Shown in pieces: positions 56,329 to 62,589 of a stretch of DNA of 64,000 bases. The notes under the pieces were generated by a model, which worked only from the letters and a program-made list of their open reading frames with translations, was not told where the DNA came from and did no database searches. Numbering within the stretch: the first letter of the stretch is position 1; each line of letters opens with the position of its first letter. The position numbers and the translations under genes are program-made. The stretch comes from Caldicellulosiruptor changbaiensis (GTDB lineage: Bacteria > Bacillota > Thermoanaerobacteria > Caldicellulosiruptorales > Caldicellulosiruptoraceae), in contig NZ_CP034791.1 in NCBI RefSeq assembly GCF_003999255.1, positions 2,210,501-2,274,500 of the forward strand, written 5' to 3'.

Positions 56329-57117
56329 ATGAAAGACAAACTTTTGGTTGTTGATATTGGAAATACAAACATTGTGTTTGGGGTTTATAAAGGAAAAGAC
56401 CTTCTTGCAAGCTACAGGATGAAGACAGACAAGGAAAAGGCAGCAGATGAGTTCGGAATCTTGATGACTCAAATGCTAAGCTACAGTGGTATATCACCAT
56501 CTGAAATAATGGATGTTATAATATCTTCTGTAGTACCATCTATAATGTACTCATTTGAAAGGGCTATCCAAAAATACTTCAATTGCACACCGATTGTTGT
56601 GGGACCTGGAATTAAGACAGGTTTGAACATCAAAACTGAAAATCCCAAGGAGGTTGGCTCAGACAGGATTGTCAATGCAGTTGCTGTAAATGAGCTGTAC
56701 GGCGGACCTGCCGTGATAATTGACTTTGGTACAGCAACAACATTTTGTGCCCTGAGCTCTAAATCAGAATACCTTGGTGGTGCAATTGCACCTGGAATAA
56801 AAATATCTGCAGAAGCACTTTTTTCCCATGCAAGCAAACTTCACAGAATAGAACTTCAAAAACCTCCAACAGTCATTGGCAAAAATACAGTGCATGCGAT
56901 GCAGTCAGGTATTATCTACGGATATGTTGGTCTTGTTGATTATATGGTAAACAAAATCAAAGAAGAGATGAATGAAAAGGATGCAAAAGTGATTGCAACA
57001 GGTGGGCTTGCAAGATTAATTGCTCAAGAGTCAAAGACTATCCAAATTGTTAATCCTATTTTGACGTTGGAAGGTTTGAGAATTATCTACTATAAGAACA
57101 AGCAGGTGATTCTATAG
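56329..57117 (+). CDS. coaX: Type III pantothenate kinase
   Basis: 262 residues, ASKHA fold. [22 protein letters not shown] (phosphate-1), [42 protein letters not shown] and ATGGLARLI are all present. It makes 4'-phosphopantothenate for CoA. Type III enzymes are not inhibited by CoA. AAAGGTG precedes the ATG. Confidence 0.95.
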
Positions 57118-57126
57118 AAAGTAAAA

Positions 57127-57170
57127 TGGGGGCTACGAACCAAGTCTTCTGGTTTTGTAGCCCTTTTTTC
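57127..57170 (+). terminator. Terminator of the dapL-coaX cluster
   Basis: GGGGCTACGAACCA-loop-TGGTTTTGTAGCCC hairpin with a TTTTTT run. It overlaps the start of the convergent 57170 gene's 3' end. Confidence 0.8.
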
Positions 57171-58162
57171 TATATCTGCTTTTCTAACCATTTTATAAAG
57201 TCATAGTGAAAGTCTCTTTCGCTAATTACCTCGTTTAGCTTTGCAGTAAACACCTTTTCAGACCAGCTTTTTTTACCATTGTAATATCGGTTACACGTTT
57301 TCCAGTATCTATATGGAAAGAGCAGAATGATATATATCAGTTCAAGCTCATCTTTGCTCAAAGGCGAGATGTTGGAGTACCAGTTTAAGATGCTCTCGCC
57401 TGTTTTTATATCCCAATGAATCCTTTTTAGAACCTTTTGCATAAAACTCGCTATATCAACTACTCTCAAATCATACGTAAGATAGTCAAAGTCAATTATA
57501 TACACATCTCCATCTTGGGTATAGAGTATATTATGGTATGAATAGTCGCGGTGGATAAAACCTCTTTTTTGTCTTGCCTCTTCGCAAAGGCTACTATATT
57601 TAGAATTTTTGATCTTTTCAAAAGCTTCTTTAGCAAGCTCATAATAATATGAATATGTAAATAAATACTCATAATCAAACATGCTTTTTCTCTTTTCTGC
57701 CATCTTTCTCATACGCGAAAACTCGTTACACCTTTTTTCAAAGCGTGTCATGAGTTTCCCTAAATCGTCTCGTATTCTCGCACCTTGCGGGACATCTGTA
57801 TAACCATAAGAGGCCTCGTGCATGAGAGCAAGCTTTTCTGCTGCAGCTTTTAGCTCAATTGGATTTTCAAGCTCACACTCTCTTGCATCTATCCAGTCAG
57901 TGAGAACATAAATATCGTCGTTCAAGATAACATATGGCTCACCAGCTTTGCTCAAGTTAAACCTGTCTATATCTAAAAATCCTCTTGAAACAAGGTGTTC
58001 CTTTCCACCGTGGATAAACAAAAGTGTCTCCACTGAATAGTCAACCTTTTTAAAACACTTTAAGCCACTGTCTGTTGAGAGTACAAGAATATCACGAATG
58101 GGCATAAAATAAAAAACCTCTATATCAAAAAACTGAGTTATTTCTTCTCTGAGCAAAATCAT
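57170..58162 (-). CDS. CotS-family protein kinase-like (active-site intact)
   Basis: 330 residues. APH/choline-kinase fold. Catalytic loop GFIHRDYSYHNILYT (HxD...N) and metal motif YIIDFDYLTYDLRVVDI (DFD) near residue 220-245. CotS relatives in spore-formers sit in the spore coat. Here they may phosphorylate a small molecule or polysaccharide. ATG 58162, 8 bp after GGAGG; a GTG three codons earlier overlaps this site. Last of three tandem paralogues. Confidence 0.8.
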   Translation of the reverse strand: MILLREEITQFFDIEVFYFMPIRDILVLSTDSGLKCFKKVDYSVETLLFIHGGKEHLVSRGFLDIDRFNLSKAGEPYVILNDDIYVLTDWIDARECELENPIELKAAAEKLALMHEASYGYTDVPQGARIRDDLGKLMTRFEKRCNEFSRMRKMAEKRKSMFDYEYLFTYSYYYELAKEAFEKIKNSKYSSLCEEARQKRGFIHRDYSYHNILYTQDGDVYIIDFDYLTYDLRVVDIASFMQKVLKRIHWDIKTGESILNWYSNISPLSKDELELIYIILLFPYRYWKTCNRYYNGKKSWSEKVFTAKLNEVISERDFHYDFIKWLEKQI

Positions 58163-58205
58163 AAAAAACACCTCCCACTAAAAACTATATGAAAAATCCT
58201 AATAT

Positions 58206-59174
58206 TTAATGCAGGGAGGTGAGAATTTTATGCTTGTATTCATCTTTTTCACAAATCCTATTTATCTTTTCTTCAAAACCTCTAAATGCCCACTCCAAAT
58301 TTCCAAGCTTTAATAGCTTTTTGATCACGCTAAAATACTCATATGGCAAAAGCAAAAGTGCTAATATTAGTTTCTGCCTGTACTGGTCAAAAGATGTGAT
58401 GTAAAAGCGTCCAATAATCTCGTCAAAGTCCAAGTCCTTATTTCTTTTAAGTAAGCTTTTGACAAAGGTTGCAATGTCTTTTTCGCGAATGTTCAGTTCA
58501 ACATCAAACATATTTATAAGTCTTAATTTATTATAGATCTTTACTATATTTTGAAGAGTGAGTTTCCCATGAATAAACCTATTTTCTTGCATAGATCGTC
58601 CAATGATGTCAATATATCTGTCATCCTCTAATATCTTTGTTGCCTTTTCTACATATTCAATATTTTTATCAATTGTCTTTAAAATAACTTTTTTTAAGCT
58701 CTCATTTTTGATAAGGTTAGGATTTTGTTTTACTTTCGTAAAAACCGAATACATGTTTCTCGCTGCAATCCTGTCCTTGCCGTAAGAAGCTTTATATCTT
58801 GCCCCAATTGTCGAAGTAAGGTTAGTAGAAGCAGCATGAAACATATTTATAAACTCTATACAGCTTGAGATTTCTTTTTCAATAATTTCAATTGGTTCCT
58901 TTTTAAAGTGCTCAATTAGTACATAAAGTGATTTATCAACCCTCAGGTAAGGACAACCATCTTTTGTTGGGACAATCTTCTCAAAGCTTACAAACTTGTT
59001 TTCTTTCAAATGTTCTTGGCAATGATAAATAAAAACAATTTCTGCCGGGGACAACTTTACTTTTTTAACAATGTACTCTGCCTTTGCAGTTTTTATCAAA
59101 AACTCATTTTGCAGTTGTTTCATACTCTTTATATTCATCCCATACTGAAGCGAGATTATATTTTTCAGTGCCAA
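58206..59174 (-). CDS. CotS-family pseudokinase
   Basis: 322 residues, paralogue of both neighbours by length and layout. Where they have HRD/HHD...N and DFD, this protein reads FIHGKLTLQN (catalytic Asp replaced by Lys) and LINMFDVELN (no DFD in the usual position). It is therefore probably catalytically dead, or strongly divergent. The N-terminal lobe still has a VKKVKLSPAE segment. The TTG start has AGGGGGGAA upstream. Overlaps the 59165 gene by 10 bp and lies 44 bp above the next, so all three are likely one operon. Confidence 0.75.
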   Translation of the reverse strand: MALKNIISLQYGMNIKSMKQLQNEFLIKTAKAEYIVKKVKLSPAEIVFIYHCQEHLKENKFVSFEKIVPTKDGCPYLRVDKSLYVLIEHFKKEPIEIIEKEISSCIEFINMFHAASTNLTSTIGARYKASYGKDRIAARNMYSVFTKVKQNPNLIKNESLKKVILKTIDKNIEYVEKATKILEDDRYIDIIGRSMQENRFIHGKLTLQNIVKIYNKLRLINMFDVELNIREKDIATFVKSLLKRNKDLDFDEIIGRFYITSFDQYRQKLILALLLLPYEYFSVIKKLLKLGNLEWAFRGFEEKINRICEKDEYKHKILTSLH

Positions 59175-60166
59175 TTCAACTTCCCCCCTACAACCTTATT
59201 TACTATCATCTCCTTTCTTGTCTGTATTTCAATAGCGCCTTTTAGTCTTTTTAAAAAATACTCTTCAGTCCATGGCTGTTTTTCAAAGTAGTACTGAAGC
59301 CCAACCTGCCAAATCTCCTGGGGAAAAAGCATCAAAATCCAAAACACTTCAAACCAGAACTTTTTGGGAATACCTTTTTCTATTAACAGTTTTAGATAAA
59401 ACTTGAAAATGTCAATATTCCACTCATTTGTTTTTAAAATCCTCACACCTAAGTTGACAAAATCATGCACATCATAATCAAAAACAGCATAGTCAAAGTC
59501 TATGAGATATACATTATCCTCAGTAAAGATAAAGTTGTGATGAGCAGGATCATGGTGGATAAGTACCTTTGGGTTCGATATTCTAAAATAACTACCCATC
59601 TTTTTTATAAAACGTATGCACTCAGCAAACCTATTTTCAAATCGATGAATTGCCTTCAAGAAACAGTTATCAAATGTGCTATATACTTTTTTTTGATGTA
59701 TAATATTCTCCATTGTTTTTATTTGTGAATACTTATTTTGAAAAATCTCTTCATAGCAAGGAAGGTGCATTCTATCTTCCTGTTTTGCAAAACAAACTGT
59801 AGAGGTATGAAGATGGTCTAAAATGCTTACAATGACCTTCAAATCAGAAAATGTTTTGTAATCTGCTCCTCTACCATCAATCCATTTGCATAGAAGGCAA
59901 ACTCTTTTAAAGTTGTCTAAAAAATAAAAGCCACCATCTGTTGTTCTTTCAAAGTCAATCAGGTGGCTTTTGAACGACGTTTTTTTCAGGTGTGAATAGA
60001 CATCCATAATAAAGTCTACGTGAGATTTGTCTACTCTGCTTAGCTTTAAAAAATATTTCTTTTTATCCTTTGTTTTAATGAAATATGCATTTGTTTTAAT
60101 TTGTTTTATTCTTTCAATCTTGATTGAATAATTTTCTTCTACTAATTTGAAATTTATCTTTTCCAC
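59165..60166 (-). CDS. CotS-family protein kinase-like (active-site intact)
   Basis: 333 residues. Catalytic loop VLIHHDPAHHNFIFTEDNVY and metal motif LIDFDYAVFDYDVHDF (around residues 215-240). N-terminal lobe holds the Lys candidate in KKYFLKLSRV. First gene of the triplet, starting with GTG 60166 without a strong ribosome binding site, so the start is less certain. Confidence 0.78.
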   Translation of the reverse strand: MEKINFKLVEENYSIKIERIKQIKTNAYFIKTKDKKKYFLKLSRVDKSHVDFIMDVYSHLKKTSFKSHLIDFERTTDGGFYFLDNFKRVCLLCKWIDGRGADYKTFSDLKVIVSILDHLHTSTVCFAKQEDRMHLPCYEEIFQNKYSQIKTMENIIHQKKVYSTFDNCFLKAIHRFENRFAECIRFIKKMGSYFRISNPKVLIHHDPAHHNFIFTEDNVYLIDFDYAVFDYDVHDFVNLGVRILKTNEWNIDIFKFYLKLLIEKGIPKKFWFEVFWILMLFPQEIWQVGLQYYFEKQPWTEEYFLKRLKGAIEIQTRKEMIVNKVVGGKLNWH

Positions 60167-60223
60167 GAAATTTCAAATTTACAAATGGCTCAATTTCATT
60201 ATATGGCAAGGTTTATTTTTGTG

Positions 60224-61120
60224 TTAATCAAAAAGTACTGTAAACTTTTCGGCAAATTTAAATGGATGATAAGACATCTTTGCCTTTCTTATACCTTCTT
60301 TCCCTAAGTCCTCTTCTCTGTTGACAAATTCAAAGTCCTGCCAAAATTCTATGAGAAATTTGTTATTGATAAAGGTATAGAGCCCTTCAATGTCAGGGTC
60401 AGCTTTTTCAATGTGAATCACAACTGTATTTTTATTTAAAGGCTCACCAAAGGTAAACGCTTTTATCTTACCATCAATAAAAACGACCATCCCCTCATAT
60501 GAGAGTTTATCAAAGTTTTTGATTGCCCTTTCAATTGCCAACTTCTCAAATGTAAGACCAACATCACTTTGTCCGTTTCTCTTTTCATACCATTCACATT
60601 CAAAATCCCAGCAAAGCCTGACAATCTCATCATCAATCTTTTTTACTTTATACCTTTCGCCATAAAGCCGTAAAAATTTATTTATATGATTCTTCTTTGG
60701 ATGATACTTTTTGCCTTTCAACTGAACCAAATCCTGAACCCTATAGACATAGTCTGAAAGGTCTCTTTCAAATATACTCTCAAATTTCATACCACACTGA
60801 GTTAGCATATCTATTGTCTTTTGAGACGCTCTTTTAAGCATGAACTTATAACCTTGAGTTTCAAAATACTTCTTAGCCTTTTCAATTACAATAGGAAGCT
60901 TGTTGGTATCTACCCCTACAGGACCGTGCAAAAATGGTGGCTGGTTATAAGGTTTTGCCATAATTAATAAAAAACCATCTTCTTCTGTAAAGTTAATATC
61001 ATAAAATGGATCCCACATAAAAAGATTTGTAAATGTTAGGTCAGCAATCTCAGGCTGAAAAGCTTTGAAATACTCATCAAATATTCTTTTGTCAGAGATG
61101 TCTATCTTGTAAAACTTCAT
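60224..61120 (-). CDS. DUF2156 (GNAT-fold) protein
   Basis: 298 residues. Two GNAT-like halves; conserved stretch KKNHINKFLRLYGERYKVKK, FECEWYEKRNGQS, and IKAFTFGEPLNKNTVVIHIEKADPDIEG, then IEFWQDFEFVNREEDLG. The DUF2156 domain is related to the acyl-transferase domain of lysyl-phosphatidylglycerol synthetase, but no membrane part is present here. Substrate unknown. It lies 57 bp above the CotS triplet in the same direction, so it may be first gene of one operon. GGGGGTAAAAGT precedes ATG. Confidence 0.8.
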   Translation of the reverse strand: MKFYKIDISDKRIFDEYFKAFQPEIADLTFTNLFMWDPFYDINFTEEDGFLLIMAKPYNQPPFLHGPVGVDTNKLPIVIEKAKKYFETQGYKFMLKRASQKTIDMLTQCGMKFESIFERDLSDYVYRVQDLVQLKGKKYHPKKNHINKFLRLYGERYKVKKIDDEIVRLCWDFECEWYEKRNGQSDVGLTFEKLAIERAIKNFDKLSYEGMVVFIDGKIKAFTFGEPLNKNTVVIHIEKADPDIEGLYTFINNKFLIEFWQDFEFVNREEDLGKEGIRKAKMSYHPFKFAEKFTVLFD

Positions 61121-61220: not shown

Positions 61221-61727
61221 ATGATTCAATACATAGTTTTGTATCCACTATACTTTCTCAAAGTATTTTTTCTTGTAAGCTTGATACTTAGCCTATTTGG
61301 TATAAGCTATAGCAGCAAGAAAATATTAGTTGTAGGTTTTATCCAAGGTCTGTGGGATACTATTGTATTCAACAATGGAATCAACTTAATGCTTGGTTTG
61401 ATACTTATGACAGTATGCTTAATACTTTTATATATCATATATTTAAGGCTTCTACCCTTATATGGTATCATTTTGGGTCTTATTTCGCAATCCTTATGTC
61501 TTGCACTAAAGTTTGGAGGATATTCAATTATCAGTACAATTGCCTATAATCTTTATTTAACGCCGTCTGTACTTGCTTGTGATATTGCTACATTGGTAAT
61601 AGAAATAACCATTATGAGTATTTTGTTAGCAGTTATTAAAAGCAAGAAATATTTTATTTGTGATATTTGCAAACTATTTCCAATTACATTTGAAAAAGGG
61701 AATGAAGCTGGCTATGAAGAAAAATGA
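61221..61727 (+). CDS. Membrane protein adjoining an orphan kinase
   Basis: 168 residues, about five hydrophobic segments between residues 10 and 140. No family recognised. The C-terminal end overlaps the kinase gene, so they are translationally linked, which suggests it could be a membrane partner or signal-input protein. AGAGGA lies before the ATG. Confidence 0.7.
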   Translation: MIQYIVLYPLYFLKVFFLVSLILSLFGISYSSKKILVVGFIQGLWDTIVFNNGINLMLGLILMTVCLILLYIIYLRLLPLYGIILGLISQSLCLALKFGGYSIISTIAYNLYLTPSVLACDIATLVIEITIMSILLAVIKSKKYFICDICKLFPITFEKGNEAGYEEK

Positions 61728-62589
61728 ACAGACAAAATTCCTACTTGCAATTCTTTTTCTCCTATTTCTCATTATATTTTTGTTGATATACTCAATTTAT
61801 TTTATCAACACAGAACTGATAAAACACTTAAGAATTCCTCAATGGCAAAGAGTACTTATTGTATACTCTTTTACTTTACTTGCTATTTTGAACTTGTACA
61901 CTGTCAAAAACCTTTTTTCTGCACTCAGTACATTAAAAACAACACAGATCTATAAGGATAATATAAAATCATTGGATAATTTTATAAACATCTTAAGAGC
62001 ACAGCGGCATGAGTTTAACAATCATCTTCAGATAATCTGGGGACTCATCTGTGTTGGAAAATATGATGATGCCGTGCGCTACATCGAACAAATTAGTGAA
62101 AATCTTAAATGCACTTCAAAGTTTTATGGGCTTGGCTGTGCTGAGCTATCAGCTTTGATATTTGCAAAAAGCTCCTTAGCTAAAAAGTATGATATTAATT
62201 TTGAATTTCGTTATAATGTAGACTTTAGCAATTTAAAGTTTGATTCGATGGATTTAATAAATATCTGCGGCAATCTAATTGACAATGCATTTTATTATGC
62301 AAAGTGCTCACTTTCTAAATATGTAGTTCTTGAGATTAATGACACAGGCAGTCAGGTTGAAATTTCTATCACAAACTCTGGATCATACATTGATGATTGT
62401 AAAAAAGAAAAAATATTTGAGCTCGGATATTCAACAAAAAACTCAACAGGATTAGGACTTTTTATTGTAAAGTCCACGGTCGAAAAATATGGTGGCCAGA
62501 TTGAGGTCTTCTCTGAGCACAAAAGCCAAGACAAATATGAAAAAGAAGGATATACAACATTTAAAGTAACTTTGCCAAAAAAAATATAA
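61714..62589 (+). CDS. Spo0B/GHKL-type sensor histidine kinase, orphan
   Basis: About 291 residues. Two N-terminal membrane helices (about 10-35 and 45-65), then a Spo0B-like four-helix-bundle phosphotransfer segment (RAQRHEFNNHLQIIWGLI, His near residue 110), then a GHKL ATPase: N box NICGNLIDNAFYYAK, G1 SITNSGSYIDD, G2 STGLGLFIVKSTVEKYGG. Resembles AgrC- and CitA-type kinases. No response regulator is in the window. The start is uncertain (ATGs at 61702 and 61714). Confidence 0.85.
   Translation: MKKNEQTKFLLAILFLLFLIIFLLIYSIYFINTELIKHLRIPQWQRVLIVYSFTLLAILNLYTVKNLFSALSTLKTTQIYKDNIKSLDNFINILRAQRHEFNNHLQIIWGLICVGKYDDAVRYIEQISENLKCTSKFYGLGCAELSALIFAKSSLAKKYDINFEFRYNVDFSNLKFDSMDLINICGNLIDNAFYYAKCSLSKYVVLEINDTGSQVEISITNSGSYIDDCKKEKIFELGYSTKNSTGLGLFIVKSTVEKYGGQIEVFSEHKSQDKYEKEGYTTFKVTLPKKI

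What the first reader, a model, noticed from the sequence alone, without database searches (positions are those of the whole stretch)
57170..60166. CotS kinase triplet with a central pseudokinase
Two paralogues keep HxD...N and DFD motifs, while the middle one has HGK in place of HxD and no DFD. Tandem active-inactive-active paralogues suggest the pseudokinase is a scaffold or regulator. If the host is a non-sporulating Caldicellulosiruptor, these spore-coat-type genes have been kept for another purpose.
Basis: partly seen in the sequence, partly recalled or inferred. Interest (0 to 1): 0.5.

Follow-up and report, generated by a model that had tools for sequence, protein, structure and literature searches.

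The report
Spore-coat kinase trio with dead middle
Three neighbouring spore-coat-type kinase genes, the middle one apparently catalytically dead, are a known kind of gene set that was lost together with spore-forming genes in two related species, so they most likely belong to a sporulation programme that this supposedly spore-less genus still largely keeps.

Summary
In detail: three adjacent CotS-type genes; the outer two keep HxD/N/DFD, the middle has HGK and NMF. HGK is invariant in 10 of 10 intact orthologues, so this is not recent decay. It is in print: Scheeff et al. (PMC2860764) describe pseudokinase 'BSKC6L' in C. saccharolyticus and Anaerocellum thermophilum, and a BSKC2-6-1 operon in Clostridium. 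The window's assembly has the published length of C. changbaiensis. 'Kept for another purpose' is not supported. Of 12 genus genomes, the same 10 keep the trio, spoIVA, spoIIIAE and full-length spoIIE. In C. naganoensis all three kinase genes and 11 of 18 sporulation genes examined are broken; in its sister (probably C. morganii) the trio is excised between intact neighbours and spoIVA, spoIIIAE, sigF and sigG are not found. Selection on the trio resembles that on sporulation genes. Best reading: a sporulation-linked kinase/pseudokinase set in a genus called asporogenous whose sporulation genes are largely still under selection. Against it: one or two losses only, and spoIIIAA of this species lacks a standard start codon.

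The parts
59165..60166 (-). k3: first gene of the trio, putatively active CotS/BSK-type kinase (HHDPAHHN, DFD); groups in trees with the first BSK gene of the clostridial array
58206..59174 (-). k2: middle gene, pseudokinase of the BSKC6L class
   Evidence: PMC2860764
58563..58571 (-). HGK (k2 residues 202-204) in place of HxD; invariant in 10 of 10 intact genus orthologues
58506..58514 (-). NMF (k2 residues 221-223) aligned to DFD; metal-binding Asp replaced by Asn in this alignment
57170..58171 (-). k1: last gene of the trio, the most conserved, putatively active CotS kinase (HRDYSYHN, DFD)
60189..60206 (-). CCATATAATGAAATTGAG in the 57-bp gap before k3; its first 17 bases are identical in 11 of 12 genomes and absent from the G007 scar; promoter-like, sigma class undecided
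60224..61120 (-). flanking PF09924 gene, upstream and co-directional; kept in all 12 genomes, so not part of the co-lost set
56329..57117 (+). flanking coaX (type III pantothenate kinase), convergent; kept in all 12 genomes

Best explanation
The trio is an operon-like bacterial spore kinase (BSK) set: k3 (looks active), pseudokinase k2, k1 (looks active). Shown here: the sequences, a predicted kinase fold for k2, an old and conserved loss of its catalytic Asp, purifying selection on all three, and loss of the trio together with sporulation genes. Inferred: the genes are switched on during sporulation, k1 and k3 phosphorylate unknown coat-layer targets, and k2, unable to transfer phosphate, acts as a folded binding partner (scaffold or allosteric subunit) for an active paralogue or a pseudosubstrate. 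The set is kept in 10 of 12 species because their sporulation programme is kept, not because it was given a new job.
For: Trio intact in 10 of 12 genus genomes, all three genes broken in G008, none in G007; the same split for spoIVA, spoIIIAE and full-length spoIIE. Excision in G007 between its nearest neighbours (seven flanking genes 83-98% identical to the window's), about 180 bp left. In G008, 11 of 18 sporulation genes examined are broken against 3 of 51 nearby other genes, Fisher p=4e-6. Median dN/dS in a clade of 8 species: k1 0.056, k2 0.139, k3 0.161; spoIVA 0.062, spoIIIAE 0.122, spoIIE 0.133. Of 24 class genomes outside the family none has a CotS gene over the cut-off; none of 37 has an intact trio without SpoIVA. 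A catalytically dead ORF directly follows the k3-group gene in 8 of 9 named clostridial loci. BSKs in print are spore-coat proteins in B. subtilis (PMC2860764).
Against: G007 and G008 are sisters (97.9/95), so the co-loss is one or two events. spo0A, sigF, sigG, spoIIAA/AB, spoIIIAB and spoIIIAD stay open in G008 and spoIID in G007. spoIIIAA of this genome and of G011 has ATT where two relatives have ATG, with an in-frame stop shortly before it; the operon may not be fully working here. The literature calls the whole order asporogenous. PMC2860764 found no sigma-E site before the clostridial BSKC1-2-6 operon and suggests non-spore functions in the expanded family. The element before k3 fits a sigma-A box (TATAAT) at least as well as a spore sigma box. 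No expression, interaction or activity data.
Confidence: 0.65

Rival explanations
1. The trio was kept for a non-spore function (first reader's idea; compare the suggestion in PMC2860764 that the expanded clostridial family split into spore- and non-spore-associated functions).
For: No spores reported in the genus; no sigma-E site reported for the clostridial operon; possible sigma-A-type box before k3.
Against: Trio lost or broken exactly in the two species that lost sporulation genes, although its nearest neighbours and spo0A stay intact.
Confidence: 0.17
2. The sporulation genes including the trio are relics of a recent genus-wide loss that have not yet decayed in 10 species.
For: Genus called asporogenous; Galperin et al. 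list missing genes and suggest relatively recent loss. spoIIIAA of this genome and G011 lacks a standard start codon.
Against: Ten genomes, mean pairwise dS of 0.31 to 0.56 within a clade of 8, no break in the trio, spoIVA, spoIIIAE or spoIIE, dN/dS of 0.06 to 0.16; decay is plain where it has begun. spoIIIAF, listed as missing, is present.
Confidence: 0.16
3. k2 is not dead but works by an unusual chemistry (as SelO-type pseudokinases do; recalled, no call).
For: N-lobe Lys and catalytic-loop Asn kept and HGKL invariant in 10 of 10 genus sequences.
Against: Both the catalytic Asp and the metal-binding Asp are gone; G012 has HGN and Met at the Lys position, and clostridial relatives lost the His too and in part the N-lobe, which fits a role without catalysis.
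Confidence: 0.05

Closest known systems
BSKC6L / BSKC6 pseudokinases (Scheeff et al., PMC2860764)
   Same: Loss of the catalytic Asp, N-lobe intact in BSKC6L, named from C. saccharolyticus and A. thermophilum; the clostridial counterpart sits in one operon with BSKC2 and BSKC1
   Different: Nothing essential found. In the passages and section I saw, co-decay with sporulation genes is not treated; the supplement was not available
CotI/YtaA of B. subtilis (PDB 2q83)
   Same: Best fold match to k2 and best sequence match to k1
   Different: Putatively active; clustered with glycosyltransferase genes (PMC2860764), whereas no such domain was found in the flanking genes scanned here
YutH and YsxE, Bacillus BSKs (YutH called catalytically inactive in PMC2860764)
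   Same: Spore-coat BSKs; mutants make spores more sensitive to lysozyme and hypochlorite
   Different: Weak profile matches of k2 only (22-24 bits); losses of activity in Bacillales and Clostridiales judged independent in that paper

Membership tests
TIGR02906 (CotS family spore coat protein, curated model) | score over the curated cut-off 172.7 | tested here: not met
   k1 392.6 met; k3 169.7 narrowly not met (6 of its 9 intact orthologues elsewhere in the genus pass); k2 125.8 not met. k2 is therefore filed as a BSK pseudokinase, not as a TIGR02906 member
BSK family (PMC2860764) | CotI/YtaA-like kinase fold | tested here: met
   k2 model vs 2q83: Z 28.1, 3.3 A over 315 residues; k1 vs 2q83 sequence E 1.2e-29
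BSKC6L pseudokinase class | catalytic Asp (D239 YtaA) lost, fold residues H148 and D269 kept, N-lobe present | tested here: met
   HGK, NMF, H113 and D233, full length 322 aa
BSKC6L pseudokinase class | is the very gene named in the paper | tested here: inconclusive
   three CotS-type genes per intact genus genome; k1 keeps and k2 lacks HxD in 10 of 10, k3 keeps it in the 5 genomes whose motifs were printed and in G011; so k2 should correspond. The paper's supplementary tables could not be read
Spore coat proteins | sporulation-specific expression and location in the coat | not testable with these tools
   no expression or proteome data
Pseudokinase | no phosphotransfer activity | not testable with these tools
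   inferred from residues only

The most novel reading that the evidence does not exclude
Most Caldicellulosiruptor species, extreme thermophiles described as asporogenous, keep a working but cryptic endospore programme of which this kinase-pseudokinase-kinase set is a part; C. naganoensis and its sister are natural sporulation-null mutants, one caught in decay and one after it.
Probability: 0.32. Interest if true: 0.72.

Novelty: already known. Interest (0 to 1): 0.36.

Why it matters
The pseudokinase itself is in print. The added value is a natural experiment: two sister species in which trio and sporulation genes went together, against ten in which both are under selection. It questions the statement that the order is asporogenous, gives matched species (sporulation genes mostly intact versus broken) for a spore assay, and ties a clostridial-type BSK set to sporulation.

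Tried and rejected
Recent decay of k2: rejected, HGK is invariant in 10 of 10 intact orthologues and the loss of the Asp is shared by the sister genus. Sequencing error as the cause of the G008 breaks: unlikely; PMC10019236 says that assembly is nanopore plus Illumina, but C. acetigenus (G001), made the same way, has no break in the trio, spoIVA, spoIIIAE or spoIIE, sigK of G008 has two in-frame stop codons rather than shifts, and breaks cluster in sporulation genes. Promoter class of the element before k3: comparison with spoIVA and spoIIIAA upstream regions decided nothing. The search for related loci with k1 returned no record of the genus, so species names rest on assembly lengths. dN/dS rows for the histidine-kinase and YbjQ genes came out misframed in some pairs and are dropped.

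Dropped before the count: G000 ORFs without a hit in G008 (L147 876, 1138, 1835; L128 34; L150 91 and five from 8303 on), ORFs at the edge of a stretch (L128 722, L150 346), and L152 13929 (4 stops in the alignment; counted as a broken other gene it would make 4 of 52). spoIIIAC was not counted. sigF was counted intact although 229 of 239 residues align and marks one stop in its match; other genes with small shortfalls at an end (for example L147 2182, 48-358 of 358) were counted intact.

Trees: two IQ-TREE runs failed, the third worked. Pseudokinase branches are long, so their grouping could be long-branch attraction; gene order supports it independently. The one-clade test did not run. In 3 of 8 clostridial loci the gene before the dead ORF scores higher with the k1 than the k3 profile; it is called k3-group because of the trees.

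Full report
WHAT IS THERE. The window carries three adjacent minus-strand genes, k3 (59165-60166), k2 (58206-59174) and k1 (57170-58171), overlapping by 10 bp and 34 bp apart, read in the order k3-k2-k1. All three match the CotS spore-coat kinase model TIGR02906 over nearly its whole length (k1 392.6, k3 169.7, k2 125.8 bits; cut-off 172.7). k1 and k3 keep HxD, the catalytic-loop Asn and DFD. k2 has HGK and NMF while keeping a Lys at the N-lobe position, the Asn and the structural His and Asp. A model of k2 built on 28 aligned sequences has pLDDT 91.5; its best fold match is CotI/YtaA 2q83 (Foldseek E 1.9e-14; VIA-align Z 28.1 over 315 residues).

WHOSE GENOME. The window lies in a single contig of 2,905,633 bases, the exact length published for C. 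changbaiensis CBS-Z (PMC6395861, passages). G008 (2,494,610) and G001 (2,739,610) have the exact lengths of C. naganoensis DSM 8991 and C. acetigenus DSM 7040; G007 (2,475,467) differs in one digit from the 2,474,467 given for C. morganii DSM 8990 (PMC10019236, first of two parts of the text), so that name is probable.

NOT RECENT DECAY. k2 has a relative in 11 of 12 genus genomes, one of them broken. HGK and NMF are invariant in the 10 intact ones. The one other genome of the family that was held, G012, has the same trio in the same order with the same nearest neighbours, and HGN in k2. Of 9 named clostridial loci (Clostridium, Caloramator, Haloimpatiens, one uncultured), 8 have a catalytically dead ORF directly after an active-looking kinase that groups with k3 in the trees: 5 found by the k2 profile (29.7 to 46.3 bits), 3 read by position and motif only (224-249 aa); the ninth contig ends there. 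In the trees all pseudokinases lie on one side of a 100/99 branch, but their branches are long.

ALREADY IN PRINT. Scheeff et al. 2009 (PMC2860764; passages and section 13 read) named the BSK family, predicted several pseudokinase classes, and state that C. [quoted passage not shown] By order and tree, k3 should correspond to BSKC2, k2 to BSKC6L and k1 to the nearby fourth gene (BSKC4); that assignment is my inference.

SAME FATE AS SPORULATION. In 12 genus genomes the trio is intact in 10, broken in all three genes in G008 (pieces also) and absent in G007. spoIVA and spoIIIAE show the same: 10 intact, split in G008, no match in G007. spoIIE is full length in the same 10, in pieces in G008, and in G007 reduced to a C-terminal match of about 315 residues plus a short N-terminal piece. 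spo0A is open in 12 of 12. Sigma factors over the SigBFG cut-off: one in G007, three in each of the other 11. In this genome the three are sigF (next to spoIIAB, over its cut-off, and spoIIAA), sigG (over its cut-off in one of two models) and a SigB-like one; G007 seems to keep only the counterpart of the last (by score; identities). The seven genes nearest the trio are present and open in both species, about 180 bp standing in G007 where the trio should be; the next two genes on the coaX side were not found there in G007 or G008. In stretches compared between C. changbaiensis and G008, 11 of 18 sporulation genes are broken (spoIIE, spoIID, spoIIIAA, AE, AF, AG, AH, sigE, spoIIGA, sigK, spoIVA) and 3 of 51 other genes (identities). 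Against the simplest story: spo0A, spoIIAA/AB/sigF, sigG, spoIIIAB and spoIIIAD remain open in G008, and spoIID in G007. G007 and G008 are sisters (support 97.9/95; the two alternative groupings tested had AU p of 0.045 and 0.035), so this is one or two losses; the Fisher p of 0.015 over 12 genomes ignores kinship.

SELECTION. Median dN/dS among a clade of 8 species: k1 0.056, k2 0.139, k3 0.161; spoIVA 0.062, spoIIIAE 0.122, spoIIE 0.133, spo0A 0.051; neighbours: aminotransferase 0.024, coaX 0.054, PF09924 gene 0.080, 168-aa gene 0.087, dehydrogenase 0.125 (the names aminotransferase and dehydrogenase are mine from reading the sequence). The pseudokinase is held about as tightly as k3, which looks active.

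IS THE GENUS REALLY WITHOUT SPORULATION? PMC10434631 (passages) calls the order asporogenous; PMC3533761 (passages and section 15) says the genus encodes many sporulation genes but lacks ftsA, spoIIM (some), spoIIIAB (some), spoIIIAF, spoVK, spoVR, yabQ and yyaC. In this genome all eight spoIIIA genes are found in open frames, SpoIIIAF included (PF09581, 54.8 bits, cut-off 28.3). But spoIIIAA here and in G011 has ATT where G002 and G009 have ATG, a stop shortly upstream, and its first ATG/GTG/TTG only about 50 residues later; it may use a rare start or be impaired. Of the listed genes only spoIIIAB and spoIIIAF were tested. I saw no report of sporulation-gene decay in C. naganoensis or C. morganii in searches (listings; most subscription papers are not held).

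CONTEXT. Among 37 genomes of the class, CotS genes over the cut-off occur in 12, all in this family; SpoIVA matches in 36, including all 24 outside the family. Seven of those 24 have faint TIGR02906 matches (19-23 bits) in an ORF of 533-536 residues. So CotS genes go with sporulation within the family, but the 24 class genomes outside it that carry SpoIVA do without them.

PROMOTER LEAD. The 57-bp gap before k3 holds CCATATAATGAAATTGA, identical in 11 of 12 genomes, the exception being the excised G007. It contains a perfect sigma-A -10 (TATAAT) and also resembles a sigma-E -10 (CATATAAT); consensus sequences are recalled. Undecided.

VERDICT. Ordinary as a pseudokinase, already described; the reinterpretation (sporulation-linked, not repurposed) and the decay series are the useful additions.

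Noticed in passing
L128:6418-6960 (G000:C1, spoIIIA operon): SpoIIIAF, reported missing from Caldicellulosiruptor in PMC3533761, is present as a divergent open gene between spoIIIAE and spoIIIAG.
   Followed up: yes
L128, upstream of 3422 (G000) and L130 (G011): spoIIIAA lacks an ATG/GTG/TTG start at the position where G002 and G009 have ATG (ATT instead, in-frame stop shortly before); rare start codon or first sign of decay.
   Followed up: partly
L123:5012-5190 (G007): The scar where the trio was excised carries a 12-bp inverted repeat (GGCTGTCCAAAA / TTTTGGACAGCC, 97 bases from start to start), possibly an insertion-sequence remnant that took part in the deletion.
   Followed up: partly
window 61221-62589: A 168-aa protein without a Pfam match next to a SPOB_a/HATPase_c histidine kinase on the plus strand, possibly a peptide-signalling pair; kept in all 12 genomes.
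   Followed up: partly
G000:C1:494188-494847 (L158): A third SigB/F/G-like sigma factor gene, over the SigBFG cut-off but well under the SigF and SigG cut-offs; its likely counterpart is the only such gene left in G007, so it may serve a non-sporulation response.
   Followed up: partly
L152:12616-13929 against L153 (G008): A murA paralogue in the sigE/spoIIGA stretch is also broken in C. naganoensis; it may have had a sporulation-linked cell-wall role.
   Followed up: no
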